Positions 41,199-58,136 of a stretch of DNA of 64,000 nt are shown piece after piece. How positions within the stretch are numbered: the first letter of the stretch is position 1; each line of letters opens with the position of its first letter. Below the pieces are notes generated by a model. The model was given only the letters and a program-made list of their open reading frames with translations, had not been told where the DNA came from and made no database searches. The stretch comes from Sulfitobacter alexandrii (GTDB lineage: Bacteria; Pseudomonadota; Alphaproteobacteria; Rhodobacterales; Rhodobacteraceae): NCBI RefSeq assembly GCF_001886735.1, contig NZ_CP018078.1, positions 1 to 64,000 on the forward strand, read 5' to 3'. The position numbers and the translations under genes are program-made.

Positions 41199-41927
41199 TC
41201 ACGCCACCAGCGACAGCCCCGCGGCCGCGTCCTGCGGCTGCTCACCGCTGTCGACGAACGGGATGATCGAGAAAGTCTGCCCGCCGCGCTGTTCTTCGTT
41301 CTGCACGGCGTTGACGCGCAGATCGCCATCGGGCGTGTTGATCAGCAGCGACAGGTAGTCATTGCCGGTGCGACTGCTCTTGGCCATCCAGGCCGAGCCG
41401 ACCCGGATCGGCGTGCCGCGGGGCGAGCTAACCTCGATCCGGTAGTCAGGGTGGGTCTCCTCGGTTTTGTAGCTGTTCTCGATCAGCATGAACTCCAGAT
41501 CGAACATCATGTTGGCGATGTAGCCGGTGAAGGCGTTGTCGGCGTCCATGGCGGTGAGCTCGCCCGAGATCGAGCCGGATTTCATCAGGCCGTTCGAGAC
41601 GAGCGGGATGATCTCGAACTCGCCGCTTTGGGCCGCGCGCGCCTCTTTCGTCTGCACCGCGTTGACCCGGAAGGGGCCGAGGCCAACATCGAGTTGCATC
41701 GAAATGTAAGGGTTGCCGCTTGTGTTGCCGGTCTCGTTCCAGGCCGTGCCGATGCGCACCTTGCGGCCCGACTTGTTGATCGCCGTCACGTCGTAATCCG
41801 GGCTGCGTGCGGACATCTTCGGGCGGGTTTCAAGCTGAATGGCGATGTCGAAACGCGTCGAATGGATCATGCCGGTGTACTGAGCGGCTGCGGTCTCGAC
41901 ATTGCGGGTGAGGGTTCCTGCGAACAT
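41199..41927 (-). CDS. Tandemly duplicated DUF736 protein
   Basis: A 242-residue protein made of two copies of a DUF736-like domain. The first copy contains SPDYDVTAI, VRIGTAWNETG, NPYISMQLD and FRVNAVQTKEAR. The second contains HPDYRIEVS, IRVGSAWMAKSS, NDYLSLLIN and LRVNAVQNEEQR. Ordinary DUF736 proteins have about 100 residues and a single copy and are common on alphaproteobacterial conjugative plasmids. Their function is unknown. ATG 41927 has AAAGGAACC upstream. A leader element with a hairpin precedes it. Confidence 0.8.
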   Translation of the reverse strand: MFAGTLTRNVETAAAQYTGMIHSTRFDIAIQLETRPKMSARSPDYDVTAINKSGRKVRIGTAWNETGNTSGNPYISMQLDVGLGPFRVNAVQTKEARAAQSGEFEIIPLVSNGLMKSGSISGELTAMDADNAFTGYIANMMFDLEFMLIENSYKTEETHPDYRIEVSSPRGTPIRVGSAWMAKSSRTGNDYLSLLINTPDGDLRVNAVQNEEQRGGQTFSIIPFVDSGEQPQDAAAGLSLVA

Positions 41928-41975
41928 GGGATGGTTCCTTTCAGATTGGTCGGTGCCTGACGTTCTTGCCAGCGC

Positions 41976-42008
41976 ATCCGGGATTGCTTTCGTGACCCCT
42001 CCCGGGAT
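41976..42008 (-). other. Leader hairpin of the DUF736 gene
   Basis: ATCCGGGA pairs with TCCCGGGAT across 16 bases with one bulge, 49 bases before the start codon and just downstream (minus strand) of the purine-rich element at 42016-42040. Confidence 0.45.
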
Positions 42009-42015
42009 CACAAAT

Positions 42016-42040
42016 CAGAAAGCCTTCTTTCCTTTCAGCC
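42016..42040 (-). repeat. Leader element copy D
   Basis: Plus-strand core AAAGCCTTCTTTCCTTTC. One of five related sequences in the leaders of minus-strand plasmid genes (others at 43405, 51952, 53901, 58111). Confidence 0.5.
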
Positions 42041-42051
42041 CCGCCCACGGG

Positions 42052-42354
42052 TCAAAGCTGCCGTCCGAGTGGGAATGCCCCCGCGCCTCCGGGTGCTACG
42101 CCCCTCCCCTGCCCGTCTGGTCTTGATTGGTTGCCCGGATTTTCTGCGGCGTCCTTCGATTGCGCGACGAAGAACTCCGTTTCTTTTCCGTTCAACCGGT
42201 GCCCGCCCCGGTCGGTCAGACCGATGCAGCTACCATTCGGCACATAGGTGATCAGGTACTGACCGAGCCGGTCCTTGTGGACAACGTAGCCGGTATTGGC
42301 CCAATGCACGGTCTGCCCGGCATCGACGGCCGCCTTGATTTCATCTAGTGTCAT
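42052..42354 (-). CDS. Small plasmid protein, unrecognised
   Basis: A 100-residue protein. The first 62 residues (MTLDEIKAAVDAGQTVHWANTGYVVHKD to GKETEFF) form a compact fold with a putative substrate-like phrase NGSCIGLTD. The tail is Gly/Pro-rich and low complexity. ATG 42354 has GGAGG close upstream. It follows a terminator-like hairpin and is part of the minus-strand plasmid gene block. No function known to me. Confidence 0.65.
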   Translation of the reverse strand: MTLDEIKAAVDAGQTVHWANTGYVVHKDRLGQYLITYVPNGSCIGLTDRGGHRLNGKETEFFVAQSKDAAENPGNQSRPDGQGRGVAPGGAGAFPLGRQL

Positions 42355-42392
42355 GCGAACCTCCTTACGAAGAATGGTGGGTAAACGACGCA

Positions 42393-42420
42393 AGAAGCCC
42401 GATCGTCCGACCGGGCTTCT
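42393..42420 (-). terminator. Hairpin between 42455 and 42354 genes
   Basis: AGAAGCCCG pairs with CGGGCTTCT over a 10-base loop; on the minus strand it is followed by TTGCG. It ends the transcript of the upstream DUF6915-type gene or acts as a leader hairpin for the next one. Confidence 0.55.
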
Positions 42421-42454
42421 CTGCAGAATTCGTTTGGCAAACGACCGAGAGCTG

Positions 42455-42916: not shown

Positions 42917-42917
42917 C

Positions 42918-43304
42918 TCACAGCCCCTCGTCATAGCTGTGCGAGCATTCGACATAGCGGTCGGCATGATCGAGGGTGATGCTGTCTAGTGCTATGTCCC
43001 AGGTCAGCGTGCCGTAGCCGCCCTCGTTGTTTTCAAACCCCGGGTGATGATGATAGGCGAGCGACCAGGCGAAATCGCCAACCTCTGTGGCAAGCACCTC
43101 CGGCAGTTGGACCTCTGCAGGCTGCACCGTCACATCCTCGACATTGCCGGAGTCGCCATAGCCTTCGTATTCGGCCGTGACCCCGCTGATGCCAAGCGCA
43201 CGTAGTTGCGCGAGCAGCTCCGCTCGGGTCGCCTTCAAGGTGGTTTCGCGCTCCGCGCGCCACTGAGCCGCCATCGCGGCATAATCGATCTGGGGATTGG
43301 TCAT
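42918..43304 (-). CDS. DUF6878-like protein
   Basis: A 128-residue acidic protein: a helical start (MAAQWRAERETTLKATRAELLAQLRALGI), then a beta-rich part (VTAEYEGYGDSGNVEDV) and a His/Tyr segment (YHHHPGFENNEGGYGTLTWD). It resembles small plasmid proteins classed as DUF6878. ATG 43304 has AGAGGAC upstream. Its leader contains an element copy and a large hairpin. Confidence 0.65.
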   Translation of the reverse strand: MTNPQIDYAAMAAQWRAERETTLKATRAELLAQLRALGISGVTAEYEGYGDSGNVEDVTVQPAEVQLPEVLATEVGDFAWSLAYHHHPGFENNEGGYGTLTWDIALDSITLDHADRYVECSHSYDEGL

Positions 43305-43331
43305 GGGTCTGTCCTCTTGTCTGCAATTGGG

Positions 43332-43407
43332 GGGCCGGGCGTGGCATTGGTCAGCGCGCGCCCGGAAAGCGCAGACCGGCCAAATCCCGATCCGCGACGC
43401 CCGACCC
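43332..43407 (-). other. Long leader hairpin of the DUF6878 gene
   Basis: Arms GGGCCGGGCGT (43332-43342) and ACGCCCGACCC (43397-43407) pair over 11 bases with one G-T type mismatch, enclosing 54 GC-rich bases. It lies right after element copy E. Confidence 0.45.
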
Positions 43408-43430
43408 AAAGCTCGCTTTGACTTTTCAGG
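43405..43430 (-). repeat. Leader element copy E
   Basis: Plus-strand AAAGCTCGCTTTGACTTTTC: the dyad AAAGC-N2-GCTTT followed by CTTTTC. It starts at the stop codon of the large helicase gene. Confidence 0.5.
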
Positions 43431-46400
43431 CGGCTTGTTCTGCCGCTCTAGCGGCTCGCTGCCCCACGATCCGGGCCAGAATGCTTCCCGTGTCGATCCC
43501 GTCCCCATGCGGCAGGAACACCCGCAACTGGAAGGCAATGATCTCGGTAGAGCAGCCGAGGGCCTTGAGGCCATCAATCATGCCCCTGTCCACGCCGCCC
43601 AGCTCGAGACGCATCTCGCCTGCGACCCGGCGACGGGTCAGGGTCAGACCCCGGCCCAGATCGACCGGCGCGGTGGTGCCGAGGGCGGCGGTCAACATCT
43701 CCTGTGGCGTTTGCGGATTGGAGACGAGGAAGCGGGCGCGCAACGCTGCCGCCCCTTCCTCGCTCAGCGTGCGCCCGATCATGGCGGGCGCCCCGTCGGG
43801 CGTGACGCGGTAGATGCGCTCATTGGTGGTCGGAATGTCCTTCCAGATCGGCAGCAGCAGCCCGGTCAGCAGGTAGAGCTTGGTCGTGGTGGTTTTTGGC
43901 AGGGACGCAGCCTCTGCGTCCCAAAGCTGGGTCAACTCGCGTCGCTCAATATCTTCCCAAGCCGAGGACTCGAACCGCGCCTCTTCGAGATAGCTCGACC
44001 CGTTGGGCCGCACCACCTTGCGCATCAGCGTGACGATGTCCTCGTCATACATCTGCATGGGCCGCGCCGAGATGAGCGCCGCGCGACCCGAGGCGCGATT
44101 GACCATCGGCAGCTTGTCGGGGTTGCGCGACAGGGCGTCATCCGCCGACAGCACGTGGACCGGGTCCGTCACCTCAAGTCCGATGATCCGCGTCACGGCG
44201 CCAGATTTCGGGCAGGTCCAGAGATCTTCCGTGGAGACCTGTTCTATCTTGTCGCCGCGTAGGGTTTCCACGCCGAGATCGAGCGTGCCCGCCGCCCGCG
44301 CCCGTTCAGTCTGATCGGCAATCCGGCGCATGAACTCGGCAAAGAGTGCGTTCTGCATGTGGATGGGCAGGGCCAGAACCCGGTTCAGAAACCGCTGGAT
44401 CGGGGGAAGCTCCTCAAGGAGCACCCCGTCCTTGTCGATCAGCCGCAGGGCCGTCCAGTCGGTGAAGCTCTCGTAGCTCATCGCCTCGGCGCGCCCGGCG
44501 GCAAGATCGGCGAAACACCCACGTAGTGCGGCCCGCGCGATCGGGCTTTCGAGATTGTCCTCCTCGCGGAACATGCCCTGCGAGCCGGTCTCGCGCTGAC
44601 CCTTGGTCAAGGCCCCTAGCTGGTCGAGGCGCTTGGCGATCGTCGAGGTGAAGCGCTTTTCGCCATGCACATCCGAGGTGCAGACCCGAAAGAAGGGCGC
44701 GCTGACCTGAGCCGAGCGATGCGTGCGGCCCAGCCCCTGGATGGCCGCATCGGCGCGCCAGCCAGGCTCTAGCAGGTAGTGCCGGCGCCGTTTCTGGTTC
44801 TTCGCCGTTTGGGCCGCATGGTAAGATCGGCCCGTGCCGCCCGCATCGGAGAAGATCAGGATATCCTTCTCGCCGTCCATGAAGGCTTGAGTCTCGGACG
44901 AATTGCTGCTGGCGGCGCGCTTCTCGATGAAGAGATGACCATCCTCGGCCTCGAGGGGCCGGATGGACCGCCCCGTGACTTCTGCCACGGCCTCGTCGCC
45001 AAAGGCCCAGAGGATCTGATCGAGCGCCGAGGGGATCGGGGCGAGCGTCATCAACTCCATCATGGCCGCATGGCGCAGGGCAAGCGCTTCGCGGGAGACA
45101 ACCAGCGCGCCATTGGCGTCGCGCAAGGGTTCAGCCACCATGTTGCCGTCGATCTCGACAAGCTTTTGCGCATGGATCGGGAAGGCCTGTTCGAGGTAGC
45201 CCAAGACGTAGTCGCGCGGCGTCAAGGCACCCTCGACGAGTTCATCCTCCGGATCCATCGTCTCAAGCCGACGCTTCAGCAGGCTCTCACCCGTCGAGAC
45301 CACCTGGATGACGCAAGCGTTGCCTGCCGCCAGATCGTCCTTGATGGCGCGGATGATGGTCGGGGCTTTCATGCCCAGCAGGAGATGGTTGAAGAAGCGC
45401 TGCTTGGTGCTTTCAAACCGGGACTTGGCCGAGGCGCGTGCTGCCGAGGCATTGGTCTCTCCCGAGGCGTCGTTGACGCCGGTCGCTGTCAGCGCGGCCT
45501 CGAGATTGTGGTGGATCGTCCGAAACGAAGCCGCGTATGCGTCGTAGATCTCGATCTGGGCCGGGGTGAGCGCGTGTTCGAGAACATCATACTCCACCCC
45601 ATCAAAGCTGAGGGCGCGGGCCGTGTAGAGCCCGAGCGTCTTGAGATCGCGCGCGACCACCTCCATGGCGGCGACACCGCCGGCTTCCATCGCCGACACA
45701 AAGCTCTCGCGGCTTGGGAAGGGGTATTCGGGACCCTGCCCCCAGAGCCCCAGCCGCGCGGCATAGGCCAGATTATGCACGCTCGTGGCGCCCGTGGCCG
45801 AGATGTAGAAGACGCGTGCGCGGGGTGCTGCCAGTTGCAGACGCAGGCCCGCAAGGCCCTGCTGGGAGGGTTTGACCCCCCTGCCCTGCTCGGACCCTGC
45901 GGCGTTCTGCATGGCATGGGCTTCATCAAAAGCCAGCACGCCCTCAAAGTCTTCGCCCATCCAGTCGAGGATCTGGCTCAGCCGCGTGGTGCCGCATTTG
46001 CCCGCGGACCGCAGCGTGGCATAGGTGACGAAGAGGATACCGTCGCCTATCGGGATGGGCTGGTCCGGTTTCCATTTGGAGAGCGGCTGGATGTCGGCGG
46101 GCGAGCCGCCGAGATCGGTCCAGTCGCGGATCGCGTCCTCGATAAGCGTTGCGGATTTGGAGACCCAGATGGCCTTTCTGCGTCCGGCCAGCCAGTTCAC
46201 AAGGATGAGCCCCGCGCATTCACGCCCCTTGCCGCAACCGGTGCCGTCGCCGAGGAAATAGCCAAGGCGATAGGCACGTGCATCCGGGTCATCATCGGCG
46301 CGCGTCAGCTTGGTCTGGTCGTCATCGATGGTAAACCGACCGGGCAGATCACGCCCATGGGCATCATGCGCCATGATGATGGTTTCCAGCTGCGCCTCGG

Positions 46401-47688
46401 AGAGATCTCCCTCCTCGATCAACCGTGTGGGCAGGCGCAAGTCATCACTGCCCGTGTTTGAGGGCATGGGCGGGGCAACCGAGGCCATGGCGATGCTTTC
46501 GACGAGCGGGGTGGGATGTTCCTGCGCACCCGCAATCTCGATCCGCTGCGGCCGGTAGCGCGCATAGATGTCCGAGATCGGCGTGTTGTCGCGCGGGGTC
46601 TCAAAGCTTGTGAAGCTGAGCGGACGGACGGCATTGGCCCGGGGTTTGGAGGCGGCAACAGGCGAAGCGGCGGTCTTGCGCGGGGCAGCTGATGGAACGG
46701 TCAGTCGAGCATGAGGGATCGCTTCAACCCGTTGGGCCGGGCGCATCTCGGTCCGTGTTGCGGCCACGGCATCGACATATGCCAAGGCTTCATCCAGATC
46801 CCGCACAGGGACGCGGATCATCTCGCCGACCTCCTGCACCTTGTCGAAGACCATCAGCTGGGTTTCGACAGAGGTGCCGAGCTTGCGGTAGACCTGCCCC
46901 GGCATCGGCAACGCCAAGCGCGGCGTGAGCAAACCGCAGGCGCGGGACCAATACGCGGAATCGCGTTCGGGCGTGAATCCCGGCGGCATGATCGCCACCA
47001 GCCGCCCGCCGGGTGCCAGACGCTTTGCAGCCGCGATAAGATGTTTGGCGGCGATGTGCTTGTCTCGGGAGCGATCGACCGAGGAAGCGAAAGGCGGATT
47101 CATCACCACGACGTCGGGTAGAACCGGCGTCTGCAGTAGATCATCGATATGTTCGCCGTCATGGCCTGTGACCTCGCCGCCGAAAACCGCGCGCAGGAGA
47201 CGCTGGCGAAAGGGGTCGATCTCGTTGAGCAAAAGCGTGCCACCGGCCCGGGCGGCAAAAGCAGCCAAGGCACCGTTGCCAGCCGAGGGCTCAAGCACGG
47301 TCTCGCCTCTGCGAATGGCTGCCGCCCGCAAGACCAGCGCCGCAAATGGCAGCGGCGTGGAAAACTGCTGCAGCCGGATCTGCTGCTCGGAGCGGCGGGT
47401 TTCCGTCAGCAGCCGTGAGGCAAGCAGCTTTGCAGCGGCGATATCACCTGCCGCGCCGTCCCCACGCAGCAGCACCTGGACAGCCGCAGCCTGCATCAGG
47501 TCATATGCCATGCGCCAGTCCCAGGCACCGCCGGCATCGCTGCCATGAAACGTCTCGCGCATGATGCGCGCCAGCGCTGAACTGCGCAGGGGTTGGTGGT
47601 CGACCTCCGCACCGATCTGCACGAGGGCAGAGGCGAGGTCAGTGTCGGAGATTGAGAGAGCCGGATTTGCCGGTTTGGGCTTGGACAT
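43426..47688 (-). CDS. Methyltransferase-strawberry-notch helicase fusion (DarB-like)
   Basis: A 1420-residue protein. Residues about 100-310 are a Rossmann methyltransferase with EPSAGNGAL (residues 133-141) and catalytic NPPF (197-200) of the N6-adenine/amino type. From about residue 410 follows an SF2-like helicase core of the strawberry-notch family: GDGTGCGKGRE (near 480), DEAHAMQNAAG (near 588), SATGA and a late SDAGGTGRSYHA with GLGRTHR. The arrangement recalls phage P1 DarB, an antirestriction protein injected with DNA. A role in shielding incoming plasmid DNA is inferred. An alternative is a plasmid regulatory or epigenetic factor. Confidence 0.85.
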   Translation of the reverse strand: MSKPKPANPALSISDTDLASALVQIGAEVDHQPLRSSALARIMRETFHGSDAGGAWDWRMAYDLMQAAAVQVLLRGDGAAGDIAAAKLLASRLLTETRRSEQQIRLQQFSTPLPFAALVLRAAAIRRGETVLEPSAGNGALAAFAARAGGTLLLNEIDPFRQRLLRAVFGGEVTGHDGEHIDDLLQTPVLPDVVVMNPPFASSVDRSRDKHIAAKHLIAAAKRLAPGGRLVAIMPPGFTPERDSAYWSRACGLLTPRLALPMPGQVYRKLGTSVETQLMVFDKVQEVGEMIRVPVRDLDEALAYVDAVAATRTEMRPAQRVEAIPHARLTVPSAAPRKTAASPVAASKPRANAVRPLSFTSFETPRDNTPISDIYARYRPQRIEIAGAQEHPTPLVESIAMASVAPPMPSNTGSDDLRLPTRLIEEGDLSEAQLETIIMAHDAHGRDLPGRFTIDDDQTKLTRADDDPDARAYRLGYFLGDGTGCGKGRECAGLILVNWLAGRRKAIWVSKSATLIEDAIRDWTDLGGSPADIQPLSKWKPDQPIPIGDGILFVTYATLRSAGKCGTTRLSQILDWMGEDFEGVLAFDEAHAMQNAAGSEQGRGVKPSQQGLAGLRLQLAAPRARVFYISATGATSVHNLAYAARLGLWGQGPEYPFPSRESFVSAMEAGGVAAMEVVARDLKTLGLYTARALSFDGVEYDVLEHALTPAQIEIYDAYAASFRTIHHNLEAALTATGVNDASGETNASAARASAKSRFESTKQRFFNHLLLGMKAPTIIRAIKDDLAAGNACVIQVVSTGESLLKRRLETMDPEDELVEGALTPRDYVLGYLEQAFPIHAQKLVEIDGNMVAEPLRDANGALVVSREALALRHAAMMELMTLAPIPSALDQILWAFGDEAVAEVTGRSIRPLEAEDGHLFIEKRAASSNSSETQAFMDGEKDILIFSDAGGTGRSYHAAQTAKNQKRRRHYLLEPGWRADAAIQGLGRTHRSAQVSAPFFRVCTSDVHGEKRFTSTIAKRLDQLGALTKGQRETGSQGMFREEDNLESPIARAALRGCFADLAAGRAEAMSYESFTDWTALRLIDKDGVLLEELPPIQRFLNRVLALPIHMQNALFAEFMRRIADQTERARAAGTLDLGVETLRGDKIEQVSTEDLWTCPKSGAVTRIIGLEVTDPVHVLSADDALSRNPDKLPMVNRASGRAALISARPMQMYDEDIVTLMRKVVRPNGSSYLEEARFESSAWEDIERRELTQLWDAEAASLPKTTTTKLYLLTGLLLPIWKDIPTTNERIYRVTPDGAPAMIGRTLSEEGAAALRARFLVSNPQTPQEMLTAALGTTAPVDLGRGLTLTRRRVAGEMRLELGGVDRGMIDGLKALGCSTEIIAFQLRVFLPHGDGIDTGSILARIVGQRAARAAEQAA

Positions 47689-47732
47689 GGGGGTTTCCTT
47701 TGGATCAGGGTCTGAGTTCCAAAGGACAAAAA

Positions 47733-47765
47733 GCCCGCTCTACACTTTGAAGGCGTAGAGCGGGC
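47733..47765 (-). terminator. Strong rho-independent terminator
   Basis: GCCCGCTCTAC pairs with GTAGAGCGGGC (11 bp); on the minus strand the stem runs straight into TTTTT. It ends the toxin-antitoxin operon before the large helicase gene. Confidence 0.8.
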
Positions 47766-47794
47766 AATTTCTTAGCGGAGGGCCTGCACGCCGA

Positions 47795-48356: not shown

Positions 48357-48384
48357 GAATGGTCCTCCAGTTGATGGGAGTGAT

Positions 48385-48402: not shown

Positions 48403-48460
48403 GATTTCAAGTCGGTATTATGTGCGCGCGTGGTTCCGTGGTGTTGTCTCAGCGAGAAAC

Positions 48461-49784: not shown

Positions 49785-51767
49785 TCAGGCCGCTTGCGCG
49801 ACCTCGCTGTCAGGCTCGGGGGTTTCCGCAGCGGGCTTCGCCTCATCACAGGCGATACCGGCGGTCTGCATCATGGGCGGGCACCAGGCGGCCACGGCAG
49901 CGCGCTGCGCGTCCGTGAGCGTGGCGAAGGGCTCGGCGAAGAGCTTGTCACAAAAGGCGACGATTTCTTTCTTGCTCGACGAGGCCAGCGTCTCCGCCTC
50001 CTGGGCGAGACCCAGATCCTCACCGAGGATCTTCAGGAGCCAGGCCTTCTTGAAGCGGTTGAAGAACGCCGCGTTCGGCGTCCAATGGGCGCGGATATCG
50101 GGCATGATCTCGATCTCGAAGTCATGCATCAGGCTGTCGCGCTGCCGGTCCCGCGCGAAGCAGGCCTGCGTGGTGCTTGCCGTCGCATAGGCGACGAGCT
50201 TGGCCTTCTCGCCTGGCTTCAGCGCGCGAAACGCCGCGAACTGATCGGCGGGAGACCGGGCGTCATCGAGCCAGGACAGATCAAGCGCATCATGCGCCGC
50301 CGCCACCTGCTCAAGCGAGGTCTCGTCGATCTCGTCCATCTTGGCGTGGTTGCGGTATTCCTTGCGGGCGTCGACCTTGATTGCCTGCGTGACGCTCATG
50401 CCGCTGCCAAGGACGTCGCTGACCAGCTTGAAGAGCGTCAGATTAAGCGTGGCCTCCGGATGCAGCGCCATCGCTGCCCCGAGCGCCATGGCCCGTTCGG
50501 TCTTGAGGTCCTCGGCGAGCGAAGCAGGGTAGGTGATTTCGCCGGCGTCCGGGGCCTCCTCCCCGGTCGGGTTGGCCGAGGAGCCGCGCGCGCCCTCCTC
50601 TTTCGCGGTGTCCTCCGGGCGGACGAGACCAACATAGAGGGTGATCTTACCGCTCGACCACGACGCGATCACCCCAGACCGCGCGAGGTCCTCGGCGCTG
50701 TAAGCCTCCTGCAGATCCCGGGCTTCCTCTTCCAGAGCGTCAACGCGGTCGTAAAGCGCGTTGTAGGCGTCGTCCTCGAGCCCCTCATCCTCCATCTCGA
50801 GCTGAAGTTTCTCGAGCTCGGAGGTGATCTCGTCGATGCGCTTCTGGGCAGCCTCATCAGGTTCGATGGGACCGGGATAGACGCGGCCGTAGTCAGCCAT
50901 GGTCGCGTAATCATAGCGCAACATCGCATCCGCCCAGGCAAAGCCCAGCTTTATGCGAGCCTCTTCGGCGGCGGCACCGAGCTTCTCGAGCAAGATGGTC
51001 TCGACCAACGTCGCATCTTCCAGCACCGAATGCTGTTCTAGCAGATCGGCTGCGACGGCGCCGCCACGCGCCTCATAGTCCTCACGCACGAAGGCTCCGA
51101 TATCGTCGCTGACCTGCACCCCGCGGGATTTGAGCGCCTGACGGACGGTGTAGGCCTGCAGGTAGCTGTCTTCCTTGGTCAGCGCCTCATAGACCTCCTT
51201 CTGCACCTCCTGGCTCGGATGCTCGGCGAAAGCCTTCATCGTATCGAGCGTGATCGTCTTGGCCCGTGCCGCGGCGCGAATGTCGGGGTGGATCAGCCCA
51301 TAGCGCAGCCGGCCCTTCACGGCAGCGACCGTGGTGCCAAAGGTTTTTGCGATCGTCTCGGGGGTCTGGCCGTCGACTTCCATCATCCGCGCGAAAGCCT
51401 CGAACTCGTCAATCGCGTTCATCGGGGCTTGCGTGATGTTCTCGGCGAGCGACAGGGCCGTGGTGACATCGCAATCGTCGGGTACGAGGCGGCAGTCCAC
51501 CTTGGTCTTCGCGGTGAACCCCTTCTCGCTCTTGTCCGCGACCAGTTCCTTCAGGGCGGCATGGCGGCGACCACCTGCGAGTACAGCATATTTGCCGTCG
51601 ATCTTCTGAACCAGGAGCGGCTGGAGCAGGCCCAGAACGGCAATGCTGGCCTTGAGATGCGCGATGTTCTCGGGGTCATAAGTTTCCGGCGCGTTGCTGC
51701 GCACATTGGCGGGGTGAGCTGTCAGATCGCCGATAGCGACGGTAAGGGGAGCAAAACTTGTGGTCAT
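49785..51767 (-). CDS. Large ParB-like N-terminal domain protein
   Basis: A 660-residue protein. Residues about 8-110 are a ParB/Srx nuclease-like domain (IGDLTAHPANVRSN, GLLQPLLVQKIDGKYAVLAGGRRHAAL, ALSLAENI). An HTH follows (ETIAKTFGTTVAAVKGRLRYG), then a long acidic helical region with coiled coil (residues 280-350). It is separate from the RepB partition protein at 61-62 kb, so it is unlikely to be the plasmid centromere binder. Such large ParB-like proteins are common in conjugative accessory regions. Function not established. Confidence 0.8.
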   Translation of the reverse strand: MTTSFAPLTVAIGDLTAHPANVRSNAPETYDPENIAHLKASIAVLGLLQPLLVQKIDGKYAVLAGGRRHAALKELVADKSEKGFTAKTKVDCRLVPDDCDVTTALSLAENITQAPMNAIDEFEAFARMMEVDGQTPETIAKTFGTTVAAVKGRLRYGLIHPDIRAAARAKTITLDTMKAFAEHPSQEVQKEVYEALTKEDSYLQAYTVRQALKSRGVQVSDDIGAFVREDYEARGGAVAADLLEQHSVLEDATLVETILLEKLGAAAEEARIKLGFAWADAMLRYDYATMADYGRVYPGPIEPDEAAQKRIDEITSELEKLQLEMEDEGLEDDAYNALYDRVDALEEEARDLQEAYSAEDLARSGVIASWSSGKITLYVGLVRPEDTAKEEGARGSSANPTGEEAPDAGEITYPASLAEDLKTERAMALGAAMALHPEATLNLTLFKLVSDVLGSGMSVTQAIKVDARKEYRNHAKMDEIDETSLEQVAAAHDALDLSWLDDARSPADQFAAFRALKPGEKAKLVAYATASTTQACFARDRQRDSLMHDFEIEIMPDIRAHWTPNAAFFNRFKKAWLLKILGEDLGLAQEAETLASSSKKEIVAFCDKLFAEPFATLTDAQRAAVAAWCPPMMQTAGIACDEAKPAAETPEPDSEVAQAA

Positions 51768-51850
51768 GGGATATCCTTCCAGGTGGGTGAGGTGTGGCCC
51801 GCGCGTTCACGCGCGTGACCAATCCCCGGCTTCAGGGATCACCACGACAA

Positions 51851-51880
51851 AAGGCCCACTTCCGTAATGGGGCGGGCCTC
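51851..51880 (-). terminator. Leader terminator before the ParB-like gene
   Basis: On the minus strand AGGCCC and GGGCCT enclose an 18-base loop and run into TTTTGTC. It may terminate transcripts coming from the right or attenuate the ParB-like gene 84 bases downstream. Confidence 0.6.
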
Positions 51881-51951
51881 TGTCAAGGGTATCGGGCAAG
51901 TCAAGAACTCCGGCGAAGAACTCATTCTTCACCGGTTGTAAGACACAGATT

Positions 51952-51976
51952 CAAAAGCCTACTTTTTCTTTTTCAC
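51952..51976 (-). repeat. Leader element copy A
   Basis: Plus-strand AAAGCCTACTTTTTCTTTTT, the clearest purine/pyrimidine run of the five copies. It sits between the IS110 end and the leader terminator. Confidence 0.5.
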
Positions 51977-52005
51977 TGCAACCGCACGTCAGTACTTAAG
52001 GGTAC

Positions 52006-53476
52006 CCCCTGTCCGGGCTTCGCTCTTCCGTCCGTAGTCAGCCATCGGCCGCCACTCTATGCCTGGTTCAATTCTGCTCCCTGGGTGCCCATCTTTCCCG
52101 CGTATTCAGCGCTAGCTGATAACCAGCGGGCCTGCGGCATCTCCAGGAACCTCGTCCCGGCAAGGGACCTCGACGTACCTGTAGTCAGGTGCAGCTCATA
52201 CCTCCGTCTCGAAAAGCCTTGGAACGTCTCGCTCAGGCTATTGCGCCGGAGCTCTGCGTGTAGCGAAACGGCGTTCCGTCGATCCACATGCGGTGCAATA
52301 CAACTCCAATTCGTCGAGCGAGAGCAATCAGGGCTCTCTTCGATCCGCGCCTGTGTGCCACTCTACGTCCCCAGGCCTGGAGCCAGTTCGGAGCGCCTCG
52401 ATGCATCAGGATCATCGCCGCCTGATACAGAGCCGTGCGTAGGCCGCGATCGCCGGTTTTGGTGATCTGTCCGACGATATCCATTTCCCCCGATTGAGTG
52501 CGCCTCGGCGTCAAACCCGCCCACGGACCGACGTCTTTCGATCGCGCGAAGCGGGTCGGGTCATCGATCGCGGATCTTACGGTCAGAGCAACGATTGGGC
52601 CGACACCCGGCATCGTCGTCATCAGGCGGCATACATCGTCGTGCTTTGCCAACCCAGTGATCATCGTGTCCAACGCCGCCAGCTCGGCCCGCAATTGCTC
52701 CCGTGCACGCAGAAGCGTCGACGCCGAGGCGGACAGGATTTTGTTCTCGGCAACCAGTTCTCTCACCCGGTCATCGTATCTGATTCGGGTGACGTGTCCG
52801 AGCTTCAGGCCAAAGTTCCTGAGAACACCTCTCATTGAGAGTTCGATGTTGATGATCGCCTGCTGAAGAGACTTTCGCGCCGTCAGCAGAGCGCGGATTT
52901 CCTGGGAGGACACAGATTTGCGGTGCACCGGCCGGTACCAACCCATTTGCAATAATCGAGCAATCCCCTGGGCATCGCGCCTGTCGGTCTTGATCGGCAT
53001 TGCTTTCAAGGCGGCTTTTACCAACCGCGTTTCCATCAGGATCACGTCAAATCCGGCGTCTTCGATCCCTTTGCTCAGCCATTGGGAAAGCGGTCCGGCT
53101 TCAAGCCCGATGGCATCAATCGTGTACGGCAGCGAGCCGATTGCAAGCACCAAGGCTTCAGGCTCGCTGGCCGCTTGGAATTCTTTAACAACTTTACCCT
53201 GCGGTCCCAGCACACAAATCGCAGTGCTTGCCAGTGAAACGTCCAATCCGATAAATACATTCATGTCGTTGCCCTTCTATTCTCAGGAATTGAGGCGCAT
53301 GGAGACATACGACCTCGTAGACGCGCTGCAGGCGCATCAAGGGCAACGGCACTTCAAGTCATCCTGACAGACAAGCGAAACGTGTTCGATTCGCCGACAG
53401 CCCCATTACGGCATCTTTCCCTTTGAGGGGTCAGCGGGCCTTCATCGTCTGAGATGTCAGGGTGAGGAGTCCCCTG
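52006..53476 (-). mobile_element. IS110-family element (ends approximate)
   Basis: About 1.47 kb between two copies of CCCCTG (52006-52011 and 53471-53476), which may be the duplicated core of the target. One DEDD transposase is flanked by noncoding ends of about 227 bases (52006-52232) and 212 bases (53265-53476). The left noncoding part folds into clear hairpins (GTCCC-GGCAA-GGGAC; ACCTG-TAGT-CAGGT). No terminal inverted repeats are expected for this family. The element separates the DUF3768 gene from its downstream terminator. Confidence 0.65.
52233..53264 (-). CDS. IS110-family DEDD transposase
   Basis: A 343-residue recombinase with an N-terminal RuvC-like DEDD domain (FIGLDVSLASTAICVLG; GLEAGPLS; KTDRRDAQGIARLL). 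The C-terminal domain has TMPGVGPIVALTVRS and DVGPWAGLTPRRTQSG, where the catalytic Ser of the family is expected. It acts with a structured noncoding RNA from the element's ends. The length is normal and no stop interrupts it. Confidence 0.93.
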   Translation of the reverse strand: MNVFIGLDVSLASTAICVLGPQGKVVKEFQAASEPEALVLAIGSLPYTIDAIGLEAGPLSQWLSKGIEDAGFDVILMETRLVKAALKAMPIKTDRRDAQGIARLLQMGWYRPVHRKSVSSQEIRALLTARKSLQQAIINIELSMRGVLRNFGLKLGHVTRIRYDDRVRELVAENKILSASASTLLRAREQLRAELAALDTMITGLAKHDDVCRLMTTMPGVGPIVALTVRSAIDDPTRFARSKDVGPWAGLTPRRTQSGEMDIVGQITKTGDRGLRTALYQAAMILMHRGAPNWLQAWGRRVAHRRGSKRALIALARRIGVVLHRMWIDGTPFRYTQSSGAIA

Positions 53477-53478
53477 CC

Positions 53479-53868
53479 CTACCAGTCGCGCGCCAGCATG
53501 ATGGTCAGCACGCGCATGGTGGTGGCAGGATTGTCCGGGGTCTCAGCCCCATAGCGGAAGTCCGAGTCTGCTTCATAGAGATCGATCTTCCAGAACACGG
53601 TCTCTCCCCGGATCTCGACCGCCCCGAAATCGTGCCAGCCCTCGGGATCATTCTCAGGCTCGAACGTGGCAAACTCACCGGTTGCCTTGACCGCCTCGGC
53701 CATGAAGCCGTCGCCGGCCTCCATAAGCGAGCGGGTGACATGCATGCGGCCCTGGATGGGTTGCGCGGGCGGCACTCCAAGGCACGCGAGCTTGCGAAAC
53801 GCGTCGTTCTGCGCCGCGATCACACTCGGATCTGGCCGGTCTTGCTGGGGTTGAACGGTCATGGTCAT
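53479..53868 (-). CDS. DUF3768 protein
   Basis: A 129-residue protein of the DUF3768 family: VIAAQNDAFRKLACLG at the start, HVTRSLMEAG, ENDPEGWHDFGAVEIRGETVFWKIDLYE and the C-terminal TTMRVLTIMLARDW. Common on alphaproteobacterial plasmids; function unknown. ATG 53868 has AAAGGAG 8 bases upstream and was chosen over the longer frame to 53991. A leader element copy lies 33-58 bases upstream. Confidence 0.8.
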   Translation of the reverse strand: MTMTVQPQQDRPDPSVIAAQNDAFRKLACLGVPPAQPIQGRMHVTRSLMEAGDGFMAEAVKATGEFATFEPENDPEGWHDFGAVEIRGETVFWKIDLYEADSDFRYGAETPDNPATTMRVLTIMLARDW

Positions 53869-53900
53869 GGGGGACTCCTTTGAGAAGTTGAAACACCCTT

Positions 53901-53926
53901 CCCAAAGCCAGCTTTTTCTTTTCCGC
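53901..53926 (-). repeat. Leader element copy B
   Basis: Plus-strand AAAGCCAGCTTTTTCTTTTC. The dyad AAAGC-N2-GCTTT is imperfect here by one base in the spacer side. It precedes the DUF3768 gene. Confidence 0.5.
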
Positions 53927-54060
53927 TTGGCAGAAGACCCCGTCCAAACCTGCCCGAACCAAACAGTTCCGAAAGTCCGCTCAGCGGACAAAGTGAGCTT
54001 TCGCTATAAGTGCGCATGTGTCCGCTTCGTCGTCAGTGACCCATGAACGTGCGCCAAGCC

Positions 54061-55398
54061 TTATCCCCTCTTGCCCCACAGGATCGCTAGAGCACCGAGC
54101 AGGAAGCTACCGAGCAGCGCCAACAGAGCTGCATTCGTTGAAGCCGCTCCGATCAGGGAGCCAAGAACAGCCACACCGAAGGCACCACCGGCTTGTCGGG
54201 ACGTATTCAACACAGCGGAACCGACACCGGTGCGCCCGGAAGGGACGTTCTCAAGAGTGGCCGATACAATCGCCGGCAGGGTGGCTCCGCCGACGCCTAT
54301 GAGCAGTGAGCCAACCAAGAATGGCGCCGCCGCCAAGCCGCCGAACATGAGTACTGCGGTGCCAAGAGCACCGGCAGTCAGTGTGACGACGGCCGGCCGT
54401 TCAGGCCCGAACCGGGCAACGATCCGACCGAGTGCAAAGGCGACGATAGCCGTGGTCGCCGTCATTGGTGCGAACTTGAGGCCGACCTCGACCGGCACTG
54501 CACCGTCCGTCTGCAAGACAAAGGAAAGTGCGAACAGCGCTCCATAGTAGGCGAAGTTGTAGAGGAATGCACCCAGGATAGCCCCAGTGAAAGCGCGCGA
54601 GCGGAAGAGCGCGGGCGGCAACATCGGGTTGTCATGGCGTCGCTCGGCGACAACAAACCCGAAAGCCGCGGCAACACCAATGGCCAAAGCTCCGATCACG
54701 ATGCCAGAGGTCCATCCGAGCTCGCGGCCTTCCGTAGCCGCAAACACCAGCGTCGCCAGCGCGACGATCCCGAGGACTTGGCCAATCGGATCGAGCGCGC
54801 GGTCCTGACGCTCAGGCCGCCCTACAGAGGCCGCCGCGGCCGCCAGGGCCAGAAGCCCCACCGGCAGGTTCAGCAGGAAGATCGCCCGCCAGCCCAGCGT
54901 GCCTGCGAGGAAGCCTCCGAGTAGAGGACCCGCAACCAAGGCGATGGCCGAAATTGCGCTCCAGCTGCCGAGCGCGCGGGCGCGTGCTTTCGGATCGGGA
55001 AATGCGTCAACAAGGAGCGCCATCGAGCTTGGCAAGATCGCCGCCGCCCCGATACCCTGGATGGCGCGGGCTGCGATCAGGACCTCGGTGCTCGGCGCGA
55101 GGCCGCAGAGCGCGGAGGCGCCGACGAAGAACATCAGGGCCCAGAGAAACACCGTCCGCGCGCCCATCCGGTCCGAGAGCGCTCCGGAGGACAGCAGGAG
55201 GCCGGCGAAGACCAGCGTGTAGGCGTTGGCGATCCATTGGAGCGCCGTCAGGCTCGCCCCGAGATCCTCGGCGATCGTCGGCAGCGCGACATGGAGGGCA
55301 GTCGCATCGAGCGTGATCATAAACGAGCTTGCGCCAAGCGCTGCTAGTGCGACGGCGGGTGGCAAGCTGCGCGTCTGGGTCGTGCTGAGGTCTGTCAT
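54061..55398 (-). CDS. MFS drug efflux transporter (DHA2/EmrB-like)
   Basis: A 445-residue transporter with about 14 hydrophobic segments. Family motifs are DATALHVALPTIAEDL (first span), GALSDRMGARTVFLWAL (motif A), GIGAAAILPSSMALL and SAISAIALVAGPLLGGFLAGTLGWRAIFLLNLPVG (motif C region). It probably exports organic drugs using the proton gradient. It is divergent from a LysR regulator with a 92-base gap. With it, it forms a cargo pair interrupting the plasmid gene block. Confidence 0.9.
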   Translation of the reverse strand: MTDLSTTQTRSLPPAVALAALGASSFMITLDATALHVALPTIAEDLGASLTALQWIANAYTLVFAGLLLSSGALSDRMGARTVFLWALMFFVGASALCGLAPSTEVLIAARAIQGIGAAAILPSSMALLVDAFPDPKARARALGSWSAISAIALVAGPLLGGFLAGTLGWRAIFLLNLPVGLLALAAAAASVGRPERQDRALDPIGQVLGIVALATLVFAATEGRELGWTSGIVIGALAIGVAAAFGFVVAERRHDNPMLPPALFRSRAFTGAILGAFLYNFAYYGALFALSFVLQTDGAVPVEVGLKFAPMTATTAIVAFALGRIVARFGPERPAVVTLTAGALGTAVLMFGGLAAAPFLVGSLLIGVGGATLPAIVSATLENVPSGRTGVGSAVLNTSRQAGGAFGVAVLGSLIGAASTNAALLALLGSFLLGALAILWGKRG

Positions 55399-55490
55399 CT
55401 TTTGCTCCAGCAGTCGCGGCTATCCTTCCATAACTTGGGGTGAAGTGCTACTTAGGTATGTAGAAATATGGTATAAGCTAAGCTGATGTC

Positions 55491-56375
55491 ATGAACCTTT
55501 CCCAGATCAAGGTGCTGGTCGCCATCGCCGACACCGGAAGCCTCACCTTTGCCGCCGAACGGCTGAGCCTGTCTCAATCCGGCGTCAGCCAAGCCATAGC
55601 CGCGCTGGAGGAAGACCTCGGTGTTCAGCTCTTCACCCGGGGGCGCCGCGGCGCTGTCGCCACCGCGGTGGGGGAGGAAGTCGTCCGCGAGGCGCGAGCG
55701 GTTCTTGCCGGCCTCGACGCGATCCGCCGAAAGGCGGATGCGGCGGCCGGGATCGAGCAGGGCAAGCTCCGCCTCGCAGCCTTTCCGTCCGTCTTCTCCA
55801 CGCTCCTGCCGCCGCTTCTGCGGCGCTTCAGGGACCTTCATCCCGGCATAGAGGTCGTGGCCCTGGAGGCGAGCGATGCGGAGATCGAGACCTGGCTTGC
55901 GAACGGAACCGTCGATCTGGGTGTCACCACCGCCGAAAGCTTCGAGGCCACCGACTGGCCCCTTGGTCAGGACGACTGGGTCGCGGTGCTGCCCTCGAGC
56001 CATCCCATCGCCCTCTCGCCCTCGCGGGCCGTCGCCCTCACTCGCCTGGCAGATGAGCCATTCGTTCTGGCAACCGGTGGCTGCACGATTCATGCAGGCT
56101 CGCTGGCGGAGCGGTTGGGGGCGCCCTTGGAACAGATCAAGATCGAGGTTCGGGACTGGGTGAGTGCCTTCGCGCTGGTCCGCGAGGGCTTGGGCGTGAC
56201 TGTCGTCCCCGAACCGACCCTTCCGGCCGACCGCCGTGGGCTGCGGGTCCTGCCGCTGAAGGAGGGCTTGCACCGGTATTTCGGGCTCCGGTGCAGCAAA
56301 ACTGCGCTGAACACGCCAGCGGTTACATCCTTTCTTGGGCTTGCCAAGGCGGCTAGCTCAGCCAAAGCGGCTTAG
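55491..56375 (+). CDS. LysR-family regulator of the MFS gene
   Basis: A 294-residue LysR protein: N-terminal winged HTH (IKVLVAIADTGSLTFAAERLSLSQSGVSQAIAALEEDLGVQLFTRG) and a periplasmic-binding-like effector domain (GKLRLAAFPSVFSTLLPPLL to the end). It likely controls the divergent transporter through the AT-rich spacer near 55450-55485. It is complete, and only the effector remains unknown. Confidence 0.92.
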   Translation: MNLSQIKVLVAIADTGSLTFAAERLSLSQSGVSQAIAALEEDLGVQLFTRGRRGAVATAVGEEVVREARAVLAGLDAIRRKADAAAGIEQGKLRLAAFPSVFSTLLPPLLRRFRDLHPGIEVVALEASDAEIETWLANGTVDLGVTTAESFEATDWPLGQDDWVAVLPSSHPIALSPSRAVALTRLADEPFVLATGGCTIHAGSLAERLGAPLEQIKIEVRDWVSAFALVREGLGVTVVPEPTLPADRRGLRVLPLKEGLHRYFGLRCSKTALNTPAVTSFLGLAKAASSAKAA

Positions 56376-56571
56376 GTTTCGAAAAGTTCGAATTTGGCGC
56401 TTACACCGCCGATGCTTGGGTTCTAGGCCCCAAATATTTGAGATAGAGACCCGCGCCGCTGGACTCACCCAACCTTCCCACCCGAACATTTGAAGCTGCC
56501 GTTTGTACATCCTGCAGCATCAGTCATTATGGGCTCACAGCTGCCATTTTCTGCTTCGCTGCAAAGCATAG

Positions 56572-57510
56572 TCAAGCAGCCTCGGCGCTGCGACCTGCCC
56601 TGCCCGCCTCCGATCTGGCAATCAGGTAGTCGCAAGCACGTTGCGCGTCCGCAGCGTGCCGGAAGATCGAGCCCTTGTCGGAGCGAAGGACACGCAACCA
56701 GTTGTGGAGGTAGGCAGCATTCATCTCGAGCGTATGCGCGGTGAAGCCAAGCGTTTGTCCCAGGAACACCGAGGTCAGTTCCGCGACGATCTCCTCGCGC
56801 GCATAGGACGTGTTGCCGAACTTCGAGAGACCGAAATCACGGTTCAGTCGATGGGGGGCTTTCGTAGCATGGGCCAGCTCATGGGCCCAGACCCCGTAGA
56901 AATTGCGCGGGTCCTGGAACCGCGTGATGGACGGCATGTAGACCTTGTCCACGGGCGGCAGGTAGTACGCTTCCGTTCCCGTGAAGACGGTCGTGATGTC
57001 GATGGCATCGAAAAACGCCTGCATGTGCGGGATGGGCTCGGACGGCGCATGCTCGGGCACGGGCTCCGGGTCGGGGAAGAAACTGTCGGGCAGGCCATCG
57101 ATCTGGCAGGCATTGAACACGCGGTAGGATTTCTGGAAGCGGAAGATGCGGGCTTCTTCGGAGCGATCATCGCCATCGCTGCGGTCGTCCTCGCCGCCGG
57201 CGTCTTTCCGGCTTTGACCGTAATAGACAACGACAGAGGACTTCTCGCCCTTGCGAACCTTTGCATCCAAAGCATTGGCCTGCGGAAGCGTCATCCAGAA
57301 GGGCGAGCTGTGGCCCGCCATCACGGTGCGCATGGTCAGCAGGAAGTTGTTCACGCCCTGGTAGGGTTCACCGCCCACGCGCAGGGGGCGAGAACTGCCT
57401 CCTGCCGTCCAAGGCTTGCGCCACGGCAGAACGCCGCGCTCGATGATACGGATGATTTCGTTTGTGATGACCTCGGAGGCATCGAATTTGGGCGTACGGG
57501 ATCGTGCCAT
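56572..57510 (-). CDS. ardC: ArdC-type antirestriction protein with metalloprotease domain
   Basis: A 312-residue protein. The N-terminal ArdC domain binds ssDNA (EIIRIIERGVLPWRKPW, PYQGVNNFLL, GHSSPFWMTLPQANALDAKVRKGEKSSVVVYYG). The C-terminal zincin-like domain (MPSITRFQDPRNFYGVWAHELAHATK) has HELAH at residues 210-214. ArdC protects incoming single-stranded plasmid DNA against restriction in the recipient. A short acidic insert (GGEDDRSDGDDRSEE) separates the two domains. The 196 bases downstream hold nothing I can assign. Confidence 0.9.
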   Translation of the reverse strand: MARSRTPKFDASEVITNEIIRIIERGVLPWRKPWTAGGSSRPLRVGGEPYQGVNNFLLTMRTVMAGHSSPFWMTLPQANALDAKVRKGEKSSVVVYYGQSRKDAGGEDDRSDGDDRSEEARIFRFQKSYRVFNACQIDGLPDSFFPDPEPVPEHAPSEPIPHMQAFFDAIDITTVFTGTEAYYLPPVDKVYMPSITRFQDPRNFYGVWAHELAHATKAPHRLNRDFGLSKFGNTSYAREEIVAELTSVFLGQTLGFTAHTLEMNAAYLHNWLRVLRSDKGSIFRHAADAQRACDYLIARSEAGRAGRSAEAA

Positions 57511-57549
57511 GGATGGCGTCCTTTCGTGTGTTGGTGAGAAGATTGGGGG

Positions 57550-58020
57550 TCAGGTTGACTGACGGGGCCGCGGATCGTTGACGATCCTCGCGCCGAGCCC
57601 TTCGACGATGTCGATGTAGGTGGTCAGCAAGACGGAACTTCCAGGGCCCCAGGGTTCAGAGGCGTCCGATCCGTCCCGCGTCACCCGCGGCAGGTTCGCG
57701 AAGGCAATCACATCGGTGACGGGTCGGATATCGATGAACGGGGTCCCTCGTGCGACCGCAAGAGTGGCCAATGGAAAGCGCTCGATCGGCGCGAGAGTCG
57801 AAACAGTAGTCCAACCAAGATGGATGAATGTCCCGCCCTCTCCGCAGATCACATGCGCGTTTGGCAATGACGCCGCCTGCTTCAGATAGCCGAGGTCACG
57901 CAGGACAGTCTCGCGCTCGAGCCGTTGTGCCTGCCCCGTCTGGCCGGCTCGGCGTAGTTCCTTGTGTCGCCACCACGAGGCAGCGGTGGCGCGCAACACG
58001 CGCAAGACACCTGTTTGCAT
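57550..58020 (-). CDS. Hypothetical protein beside ardC
   Basis: A 156-residue protein: a basic helical start (VLRVLRATAASWWRHKELRRAGQTGQAQRLERETVLRDLGYL) followed by an alpha/beta part (NAHVICGEGGTFIHLGW, PFIDIRPVTDVIAFANLPRV). The N-terminal WWRHKELRRAG resembles the beginning of DUF1127-like peptides, but this is a weak similarity. Start ATG 58020 has AAGGG upstream; ATG 58035 is an alternative. It lies directly upstream of ardC and has a leader element with a hairpin, so it probably shares the expression pattern. Confidence 0.6.
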   Translation of the reverse strand: MQTGVLRVLRATAASWWRHKELRRAGQTGQAQRLERETVLRDLGYLKQAASLPNAHVICGEGGTFIHLGWTTVSTLAPIERFPLATLAVARGTPFIDIRPVTDVIAFANLPRVTRDGSDASEPWGPGSSVLLTTYIDIVEGLGARIVNDPRPRQST

Positions 58021-58071
58021 GGGAATGCCCTTCATCAGGAAAGACAGACCGGAATCCGGCCCGGACCCATC

Positions 58072-58093
58072 TGAGGGACCCCAAAGGCCCTCA
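58072..58093 (-). other. Leader hairpin of the 57550 gene
   Basis: TGAGGG pairs with CCCTCA over a 10-base loop, located between leader element copy C and the start codon. Confidence 0.35.
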
Positions 58094-58110
58094 TCCGTCA
58101 GTCACAAAAC

Positions 58111-58136
58111 CCGAAGAACGCTTTCTCTTTTTCCGG
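58111..58136 (-). repeat. Leader element copy C
   Basis: Plus-strand GAAGAACGCTTTCTCTTTTT, the most diverged of the five copies but with the same order: short dyad, then CTTTTT. Confidence 0.4.

What the first reader, a model, noticed from the sequence alone, without database searches (positions are those of the whole stretch)
41199..58136. Five copies of a shared leader element before minus-strand plasmid genes
Related sequences occur at 42016, 43405, 51952, 53901 and 58111, all in the same orientation relative to the following gene (DUF736 pair, DUF6878, ParB-like, DUF3768, 57550 protein next to ardC). Plus-strand core: AAAGC-N2-GCTTT-like dyad then CTTTTC. Four of the five are followed within about 100 bases by a hairpin (41976, 43332, 51851, 58072) before the start codon. 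Nearly all genes of this 17-kb block point the same way and include ArdC and a DarB-like protein. In conjugative plasmids, leading regions carry anti-defence genes transcribed from single-stranded DNA promoters that fold into hairpins. The elements may be such promoters, or sites for one plasmid regulator. This could be an undescribed expression system of rhodobacterial plasmids.
Basis: partly seen in the sequence, partly recalled or inferred. Interest (0 to 1): 0.75.

Follow-up and report, generated by a model that had tools for sequence, protein, structure and literature searches.

The report
Plasmid leader element hunted by transposon
A short conserved DNA signal sits in front of the gene groups that these marine bacterial plasmids probably deliver first when they spread, and an RNA-guided jumping element is programmed to land inside that very signal while carrying its own copy of it.

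Summary
The five sites are real, but they are not one class. Four (42017, 43406, 53902, 58111) are leader elements kept at the same place in dozens of Rhodobacterales plasmids (gene-sense consensus GAAAAGNNAAAGCNGGCTTT). A weaker sixth, before the strawberry-notch gene, was missed. The fifth (51952) is not a leader: it lies inside an IS110-family, IS1111-type insertion sequence (51859-53414) that split the ParB-like gene's leader. Of 17 distinct copies of this IS found, 16 sit at the same point inside such leaders (ParB, DUF3768, SNO, DUF6878, g57550), one in the window genome's largest contig. The predicted guide matches its own target with 0-1 mismatch in 8 bases in 17 of 17. All 17 also carry their own copy of the element near the right end, with 2-4 mismatches to the guide. 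Upstream of most elements the sequence is interchangeable; element and downstream leader are kept. Hairpin single-strand promoters are not supported: as DNA, four leaders fold no better than shuffles. Geometry in six relatives (nic-like site, relaxase) fits a leading region. Best reading: a double-stranded promoter/operator site for leading-region operons, exploited by a guide-programmed IS that brings a substitute. The element's function is inferred, not shown.

The parts
42017..42039 (-). leader element before the DUF736 double-domain gene (41199-41927)
   Evidence: profile score 23.9; present in 47 of 47 orthologous leaders
43406..43428 (-). leader element before DUF6878 (42918-43304), starting at the stop codon of the strawberry-notch gene
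   Evidence: score 30.9; native element in 38 of 39 orthologous leaders, the 39th scores through an IS copy
47728..47750 (-). terminator-fused form of the element before the strawberry-notch/methylase gene (43426-47688)
   Evidence: score 13.4; native element in 35 of 62 orthologous leaders; terminator-like stem 47765-47733
53902..53924 (-). leader element before DUF3768 (53479-53868)
   Evidence: score 32.1; native element in 72 of 78 orthologous leaders
58111..58133 (-). leader element before the 57550 gene, first gene of the ardC operon
   Evidence: score 27.0; native element in 56 of 59 orthologous leaders
51859..53414 (-). IS110-family, IS1111-type insertion sequence, 1556 bp, inserted in the ParB leader element
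   Evidence: subterminal inverted repeats CCGTAATGGGGC/GCCCCATTACGG; relatives without it mostly have AARGYGGGCCTTTTGTC or close variants here
52233..53264 (-). IS110-family RNA-guided transposase, 343 aa
   Evidence: NF033542, 236.7 bits against cut-off 140
52123..52135 (-). predicted guide segment complementary to the target top strand (AGGCCCGC)
   Evidence: 0-1 mismatch to the own target in 17 of 17 copies
52089..52101 (-). predicted second guide segment (GGAAAG), same sense as the target left half
   Evidence: follows the first, as described for IS1111 seekRNA
51952..51974 (-). IS-borne copy of the leader element, same orientation, 93 bp from the IS right end
   Evidence: score 29.8; such a copy is seen in 17 of 17 IS copies; 31 of 40 positions of the stretch invariant
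53415..53430 (-). left (upstream) half of the split ParB leader element, CTCAAAGGGAAAG
   Evidence: flank of the IS
51846..51858 (-). right (downstream) half of the split ParB leader element, TGGGCCTTTTGTC
   Evidence: flank of the IS
49785..51767 (-). ParB-like protein, 660 aa, candidate regulator
   Evidence: ParB_N and HTH_ParB
43426..47688 (-). strawberry-notch helicase with methyltransferase-like N-terminus
   Evidence: AAA_34 and Helicase_C_4; MTS domain just below its cut-off
56572..57510 (-). ArdC antirestriction protein
   Evidence: ArdcN and MPTase-PolyVal

Best explanation
Shown: a 23-bp, sequence-constrained, one-way element marks the 5' boundary of several transcription units in a leading-region block of Rhodobacterales conjugative plasmids; an IS1111-type insertion sequence inserts between AAAG and YGGGC (or its equivalent) of these elements. 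Strongly supported by covariation: the choice is made by its guide RNA. Inferred: the element is a double-stranded DNA control site (promoter core or operator of one plasmid regulator, the ParB-like protein being the obvious candidate) that switches the leading operons together. Inferred: because insertion splits the site, the IS carries a substitute copy just inside its right end, in the gene's orientation and mismatched to its own guide, so the interrupted gene keeps its control and the IS does not target itself.
For: Native element (profile at least 18, IS-borne copies taken out) before DUF736 47/47, DUF6878 38/39, DUF3768 72/78, g57550 56/59, SNO 35/62, ParB 19/86, ArdC 4/65, and 0 leaders of ten other families: hyp42, DUF6915, DUF6927, reg, DUF6330, DUF2493, RelB, PrlF, YhaV, StaA (88 loci and the window, orthologues not independent). 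It persists in diverged relatives, e.g. DUF3768 at 51% identity. Boundary: for g57550 mean pairwise identity is 0.41 in the 60 nt upstream, 0.86 in the element, 0.91 in the 25 nt after it; DUF3768 0.53/0.85/0.82, SNO 0.52/0.94/0.88, ParB 0.49/0.89/0.89. Promoter-like sites are at chance level, and the SNO gene has about 45 nt between a terminator-like stem and its start. IS: 17 distinct copies, 16 in leader elements of five genes, at the same point and in the same orientation. Guide against own target, 8 bases: 0 mismatches in 8 copies, 1 in 9; guide against the IS's own element copy: 2-4. Three relatives of the IS have no such copy: best profile scores 12.1, 13.7 and 6.9 in the whole fetched stretches.
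Against: No transcript start, binding or expression data. The boundary is weaker for DUF6878 (0.82 upstream) and DUF736 (0.74), where an upstream coding region adjoins, and the element stretch was chosen by the profile, so its own conservation is biased upward. Some diverged leaders lack it: DUF3768 and DUF736 of L242 (best scores 1.3 and -7.1), most diverged SNO leaders. The IS-borne copy is only mildly more conserved than the rest of the non-coding region (0.944 against 0.912; 82 of 307 windows score higher), so it could be a fossil. IS copies are not independent: window, L015 and L137 share a genome; L019 has two; L037 and L039 share an assembly; L131, L132 and L134 share a species. One copy (L137) is outside any leader. 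The sigma-factor-like hit in the ParB-like C-terminus is far below its cut-off.
Confidence: 0.42

Rival explanations
1. RNA-level leader: the element acts in the transcript, as an antitermination, processing or attenuation signal that lets a long leading-region transcript pass the intrinsic terminators placed before SNO and ParB.
For: Terminator-like hairpins close before the SNO and ParB starts, RNA z -6.42 and -5.08; DUF736 leader z -2.14; the terminator forms keep the right half of the element; purine-rich repeated leaders also occur in a Sphingobium plasmid.
Against: DUF6878, DUF3768 and g57550 leaders fold like shuffles as RNA; terminator-like sites over the whole block are at chance number, 15 against 14.0; no compensatory changes in the dyad; the first gene of the block (g57550) also has it although no gene of the same strand lies just upstream.
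Confidence: 0.25
2. Recombination boundary without regulatory role: shared short homology (and an IS target) at which upstream modules are exchanged, kept because modules spread through it.
For: Upstream sequence is swapped right at the element; at least 14 of 56 g57550 leaders have a stretch ending CATCAGATCCC abutting it, in the one printed in full with the inverted partner GGGGTCTGATGCCG; different toxin-antitoxin modules lie upstream of SNO.
Against: Same orientation, at median distances of 33-101 nt before a start codon; the core persists where flanks have diverged; the IS carries its own copy.
Confidence: 0.15
3. Single-stranded T-strand signal: promoter or priming site used on incoming DNA.
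For: Block genes use the presumed T-strand as template; leading-region anti-defence genes have that orientation in other plasmids (PMC11541004, passages).
Against: No folding signal in four leaders as DNA; promoter-like sites at chance level; dyad arms do not covary.
Confidence: 0.1
4. About the IS only: the IS-borne element copy is a captured fossil of a former target, without function.
For: Conservation only slightly above the rest of the non-coding region; it may go back to one event in one clade.
Against: Present in 17 of 17 copies and 31 of 40 positions invariant although guides and targets changed; it differs from the leaders where the guide reads and stays close to leader variation.
Confidence: 0.35

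Closest known systems
IS1111-family insertion sequences with seekRNA (ISEc11, ISPa11, ISKpn4, ISPst6)
   Same: IS110/IS1111-type transposase, 12-bp subterminal inverted repeats, non-coding region after the transposase gene, top-strand guide before bottom-strand guide, fixed site and orientation; natural re-direction of the guide is known there too (PMC11187229, parts 1-3 of 9 of the text read)
   Different: Targets are leader elements in a plasmid leading region, with guide variants tuned to single leaders, and the IS carries a copy of its target class
Frpo/ssi single-strand promoters of leading regions
   Same: Leading-region genes in the template orientation, anti-restriction genes (PMC11541004, passages only)
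   Different: No long hairpin in four leaders and no -35/-10 pair above chance; the element is a 23-bp sequence
KorB operators of RK2 (recalled, no call)
   Same: ParB-family regulator with many short palindromic sites before plasmid operons
   Different: This element is asymmetric and binding by the ParB-like protein is untested
ops/RfaH antitermination elements (recalled, no call)
   Same: short repeated signal near the start of plasmid transcription units
   Different: Sequence unrelated (recalled); no NusG/RfaH-like domain appeared among the block proteins scanned with Pfam

Membership tests
IS1111-type IS110 family | IS110-family RNA-guided transposase | tested here: met
   NF033542, 236.7 bits, cut-off 140
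IS1111-type IS110 family | subterminal inverted repeats of 11-13 bp | tested here: met
   CCGTAATGGGGC / GCCCCATTACGG, read
IS1111-type IS110 family | long non-coding region downstream of tnp | tested here: met
   374 nt between the tnp stop (52233) and the right end (51859)
IS1111-type IS110 family | terminal extensions of 7 bp left and 3 bp right | tested here: inconclusive
   right AAG; the left end is 3 or 7 bp because AAAG is shared with the target
IS1111-type IS110 family | guide to the top strand precedes guide to the bottom strand | tested here: met
   predicted segments at offsets 1279 and 1313 of the IS; assignment is by sequence match only
IS1111-type IS110 family | seekRNA bound to the transposase | not testable with these tools
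   needs biochemistry
Frpo-type single-strand promoter | T-strand folds into a hairpin mimicking a double-stranded promoter | tested here: not met
   z -0.08, 0.62, 1.27, -0.98 for four leaders; SNO and ParB fold well but as terminators
Frpo-type single-strand promoter | -35 and -10 elements | tested here: not met
   4 promoter-like sites in 17 kb against 3.2 expected; one (9 of 12 matches, 58232-58205) lies about 72 bp upstream of the g57550 element, none overlaps an element
Frpo-type single-strand promoter | genes templated by the T-strand in the leading region | tested here: inconclusive
   nic-like site on that strand in 6 of 6 relatives, nick consensus recalled; none found in the window or the next 20 kb
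Frpo-type single-strand promoter | sequence similarity to known Frpo/ssi | not tested
   no comparison with the known sequences was made
KorB-like operator system | ParB-family protein binds the site | not testable with these tools
   ParB-like protein present; binding unknown

The most novel reading that the evidence does not exclude
An RNA-guided insertion sequence has specialised on the control elements of a plasmid's leading region: its guide RNA is retuned to one leader after another, and it brings along a guide-resistant replacement of the very control element that it splits, so that insertion is nearly silent for the plasmid and the IS travels in the first DNA to enter each new host.
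Probability: 0.35. Interest if true: 0.76.

Novelty: new variant of a known kind. Interest (0 to 1): 0.6.

Why it matters
It gives a short, testable handle on how these alphaproteobacterial plasmids may switch on their entry genes, where the scan recognised no promoter, and it shows natural retuning of IS110-type guide RNAs across five target genes of one plasmid block, a natural experiment for guide-target rules. If the substitute element works, it is a way for a programmable transposon to insert at functional sites without harming its vehicle.

Tried and rejected
Rfam: 4 matches up to E 5 in 38000-64000, all below their gathering scores; none coincides with an element. The AAAGCNNGCTTT dyad as a structure: the left arm AAAG is near invariant while its partners vary (pair 9-20 is A-C in 30 of 105 distinct gene-sequence entries), so no covariation. 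The idea that the 51952 copy is itself the IS guide: dropped when guide segments that covary with the targets were found about 150 nt upstream of it. Chromosomal regulon: a perfect pattern match in L098 lies inside a long ORF and looks like chance. Virus collection: 31 stretches with one exact match each, not examined further. Other plasmid families: L005, L006 and L007 gave no profile hit at 13; Rhizobium L013 one at 13.4 inside a coding sequence; Phaeobacter L004 three (13.1, 16.7, 21.1) on the minus strand, the 21.1 one before a plus-strand gene and the 16.7 one about 180 nt before a minus-strand small gene; none was followed further. Sphingobium L007 and Sulfitobacter L174 show other repeated leaders. 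ParB-like homologues: the 120 listed of 396 were too alike (81-100%) to say more; no structure was predicted. Literature: none of the rows listed by the searches was about such an element or this IS target, judged by titles and abstract starts; beyond listings I saw passages of PMC11541004, PMC4886583 and PMC13386836 and parts 1-3 of PMC11187229.

Slips: the database wrongly included protein records (warnings printed); it was rebuilt. In one search the patterns for the second guide and the element copy returned nothing; both were then read. L039 has an SNO-type left flank and a DUF3768-type right flank at a contig end, so it may be a rearrangement or an assembly join. Rows dropped: tblastn matches starting after residue 10; leaders under score 18, those with too little upstream sequence, and IS-borne copies for four of the six genes.
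Full report
What is there. The window is the first 64 kb of a 95-kb contig (C3) of a 4.69-Mb genome in 6 contigs. The minus-strand block 41199-58136 encodes DUF736, a small protein, DUF6915, DUF6878, a strawberry-notch helicase, a ParE/RelB-type pair, DUF6927, a 197-aa protein, a ParB-like protein, DUF3768, ArdC and a 161-aa protein, with an IS and an MFS/LysR pair inserted. A similar block, 82% identical over the DUF736 stretch, lies on contig C6. A megablast of the block matches 236 of 72,556 plasmid records, mostly Roseobacter-group genera. In six relatives read in full the order is relaxase, small genes, DUF2493, variable cargo, the block, then Fic and repC in five or other cargo and repC in one.

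The element. A profile from 21 leader stretches (four of them window copies) finds the five reported sites at 23.9-32.1; every other site in the window scores 16.3 or less. In 88 other loci (two of them C6 of the same genome) and the window, hits of at least 18 within 400 nt upstream were found for DUF736 47 of 47, DUF6878 39 of 39, DUF3768 74 of 78, g57550 57 of 59, SNO 36 of 62, ParB 23 of 86 and ArdC 4 of 65, and for 0 of ten other families. Of these 0, 1, 2, 1, 1, 4 and 0 are IS-borne copies. With a strict core AAAGNNAAAGN3-4CYT the counts over distinct 180-nt upstreams of a wider set are g57550 41/57, ArdC 10/82, DUF3768 82/94, ParB 49/100, SNO 28/59, DUF6878 35/39, DUF736 2/62 (there the two AAAG boxes are one base closer) and 0 in the ten other families. 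It persists in many diverged relatives, but not in all: the DUF3768 and DUF736 leaders of L242 and most diverged SNO leaders lack it. Across 196 genomes of the order the pattern gives 61 hits in 34 genomes against 20 for the reversed pattern; of 30 loci returned, 21 have block genes alongside and 9 do not.

What it is not. It is not a structured single-strand promoter by these tests: as T-strand DNA four leaders fold like shuffles and only SNO and ParB leaders fold well, as terminators; as RNA DUF736 is mildly better than shuffles too. The dyad does not covary. Promoter-like and terminator-like sites over the block are at chance number, 4 against 3.2 and 15 against 14.0; one promoter-like site lies about 72 bp upstream of the g57550 element. 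The SNO and ParB leaders carry the right half of the element inside the terminator's 3' arm.

Boundary. For g57550, DUF3768, SNO and ParB the sequence upstream of the element is nearly unrelated between orthologous leaders (0.41-0.53) while element and downstream leader are kept (0.82-0.94); for DUF6878 and DUF736 the contrast is smaller. This places the functional start of these units at the element. At least 14 of 56 g57550 leaders have a CATCAGATCCC-ending stretch abutting it, and different toxin-antitoxin modules lie upstream of SNO.

The insertion sequence. 51859-53414 is an IS110-family element of IS1111 type. I found 17 distinct copies with both ends. Sixteen sit in leader elements: ParB-type leaders (window, L015, L019, L130, L131, L132, L134, L136), DUF3768 (L019, L037), DUF6878 (L011, L135), g57550 (L079, L133), SNO (L096) and the mixed L039; one (L137) sits in the largest contig of the window's genome at GACGAGAAAG/AGGGCCTTTTCG. 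In the sixteen the transposase reads in the direction of the downstream gene. The predicted guide next to GAGATGCCG reads GCGGGCCT for the nine GGGCCT targets, GCGGGCTT for the six GGCTT targets, and GTGTTCTT and GTGTCCTT for the two g57550 targets; over 8 bases it matches its own target with 0 mismatches in 8 copies and 1 in 9. A second segment resembling the left half of the target follows it, as published for IS1111 seekRNA. The element copy is present in 17 of 17, 93-96 bp from the right end; over the same 8 bases it reads GTAAGCTT, GTAGGCTT, GAAAGCTT or GCAAGCTT and has 2-4 mismatches to its own guide, while staying close to the variation of true leaders. Three relatives of the IS, which share 66% and 48% of the transposase sequence or 70% of part of the non-coding region, have no such copy: best profile scores 12.1, 13.7 and 6.9. 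Its conservation is only mildly above the surrounding non-coding DNA, so function rests on identity, orientation and position.

Geometry. In 6 of 6 relatives an invariant CCCCCTATTTCCTGCCACC lies beside the relaxase operon on the strand that templates the block genes; the nick consensus is recalled. The window shows only a 3-mismatch match, expected by chance, the next 20 kb none, and the two relaxase matches of this genome lie on C6.

Mechanism. I commit to a double-stranded control site, promoter core or operator, at 0.42. The RNA-level reading (0.25) and a pure recombination boundary (0.15) remain open; single-strand use is least likely (0.10). That the IS hits these elements rests on direct sequence comparison; that its guide chooses them is inferred from covariation; that its element copy is a working substitute is inferred.

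Noticed in passing
L007 2286, 3206, 7499, 20118: A Sphingobium plasmid has its own repeated leader, a purine tract (GAGAGGGGAGGG type) before toprim, strawberry-notch, ParB-like and another gene.
   Followed up: partly
L174 upstream of 13995, 14494, 14872: A Sulfitobacter plasmid has a hairpin followed by a shared TTTTCCTGCTGGCGGA-like leader before DUF3768, a small gene and, in looser form, strawberry-notch (by eye).
   Followed up: partly
L137 (G000:C1:2365500-2371500): The same IS inserted in the largest contig of the window's genome at a site that matches its guide but is not a leader element.
   Followed up: partly
54061-56375: An MFS transporter and a divergent LysR-type regulator lie between DUF3768 and ArdC where relatives such as L003 have DUF6330.
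   Followed up: partly
58313-59515: Fic-domain protein beside the block resembles a PADLOC SoFic model (E 1e-23); the strawberry-notch protein has a PADLOC mad2 hit (E 5.9e-16) in its N-terminal part.
   Followed up: no
27694-39206: Type IV secretion genes (VirB4-, VirB10-, VirB11- and VirB6-like) on C3, while the relaxase matches in this genome lie on C6.
   Followed up: partly
49785-51767: C-terminus of the ParB-like protein (569-654) has a weak hit to an RNA polymerase sigma factor model, far below cut-off.
   Followed up: no
L198: A g57550 leader with what looks like the IS-borne element copy, so probably a further IS insertion; not counted among the 17.
   Followed up: no
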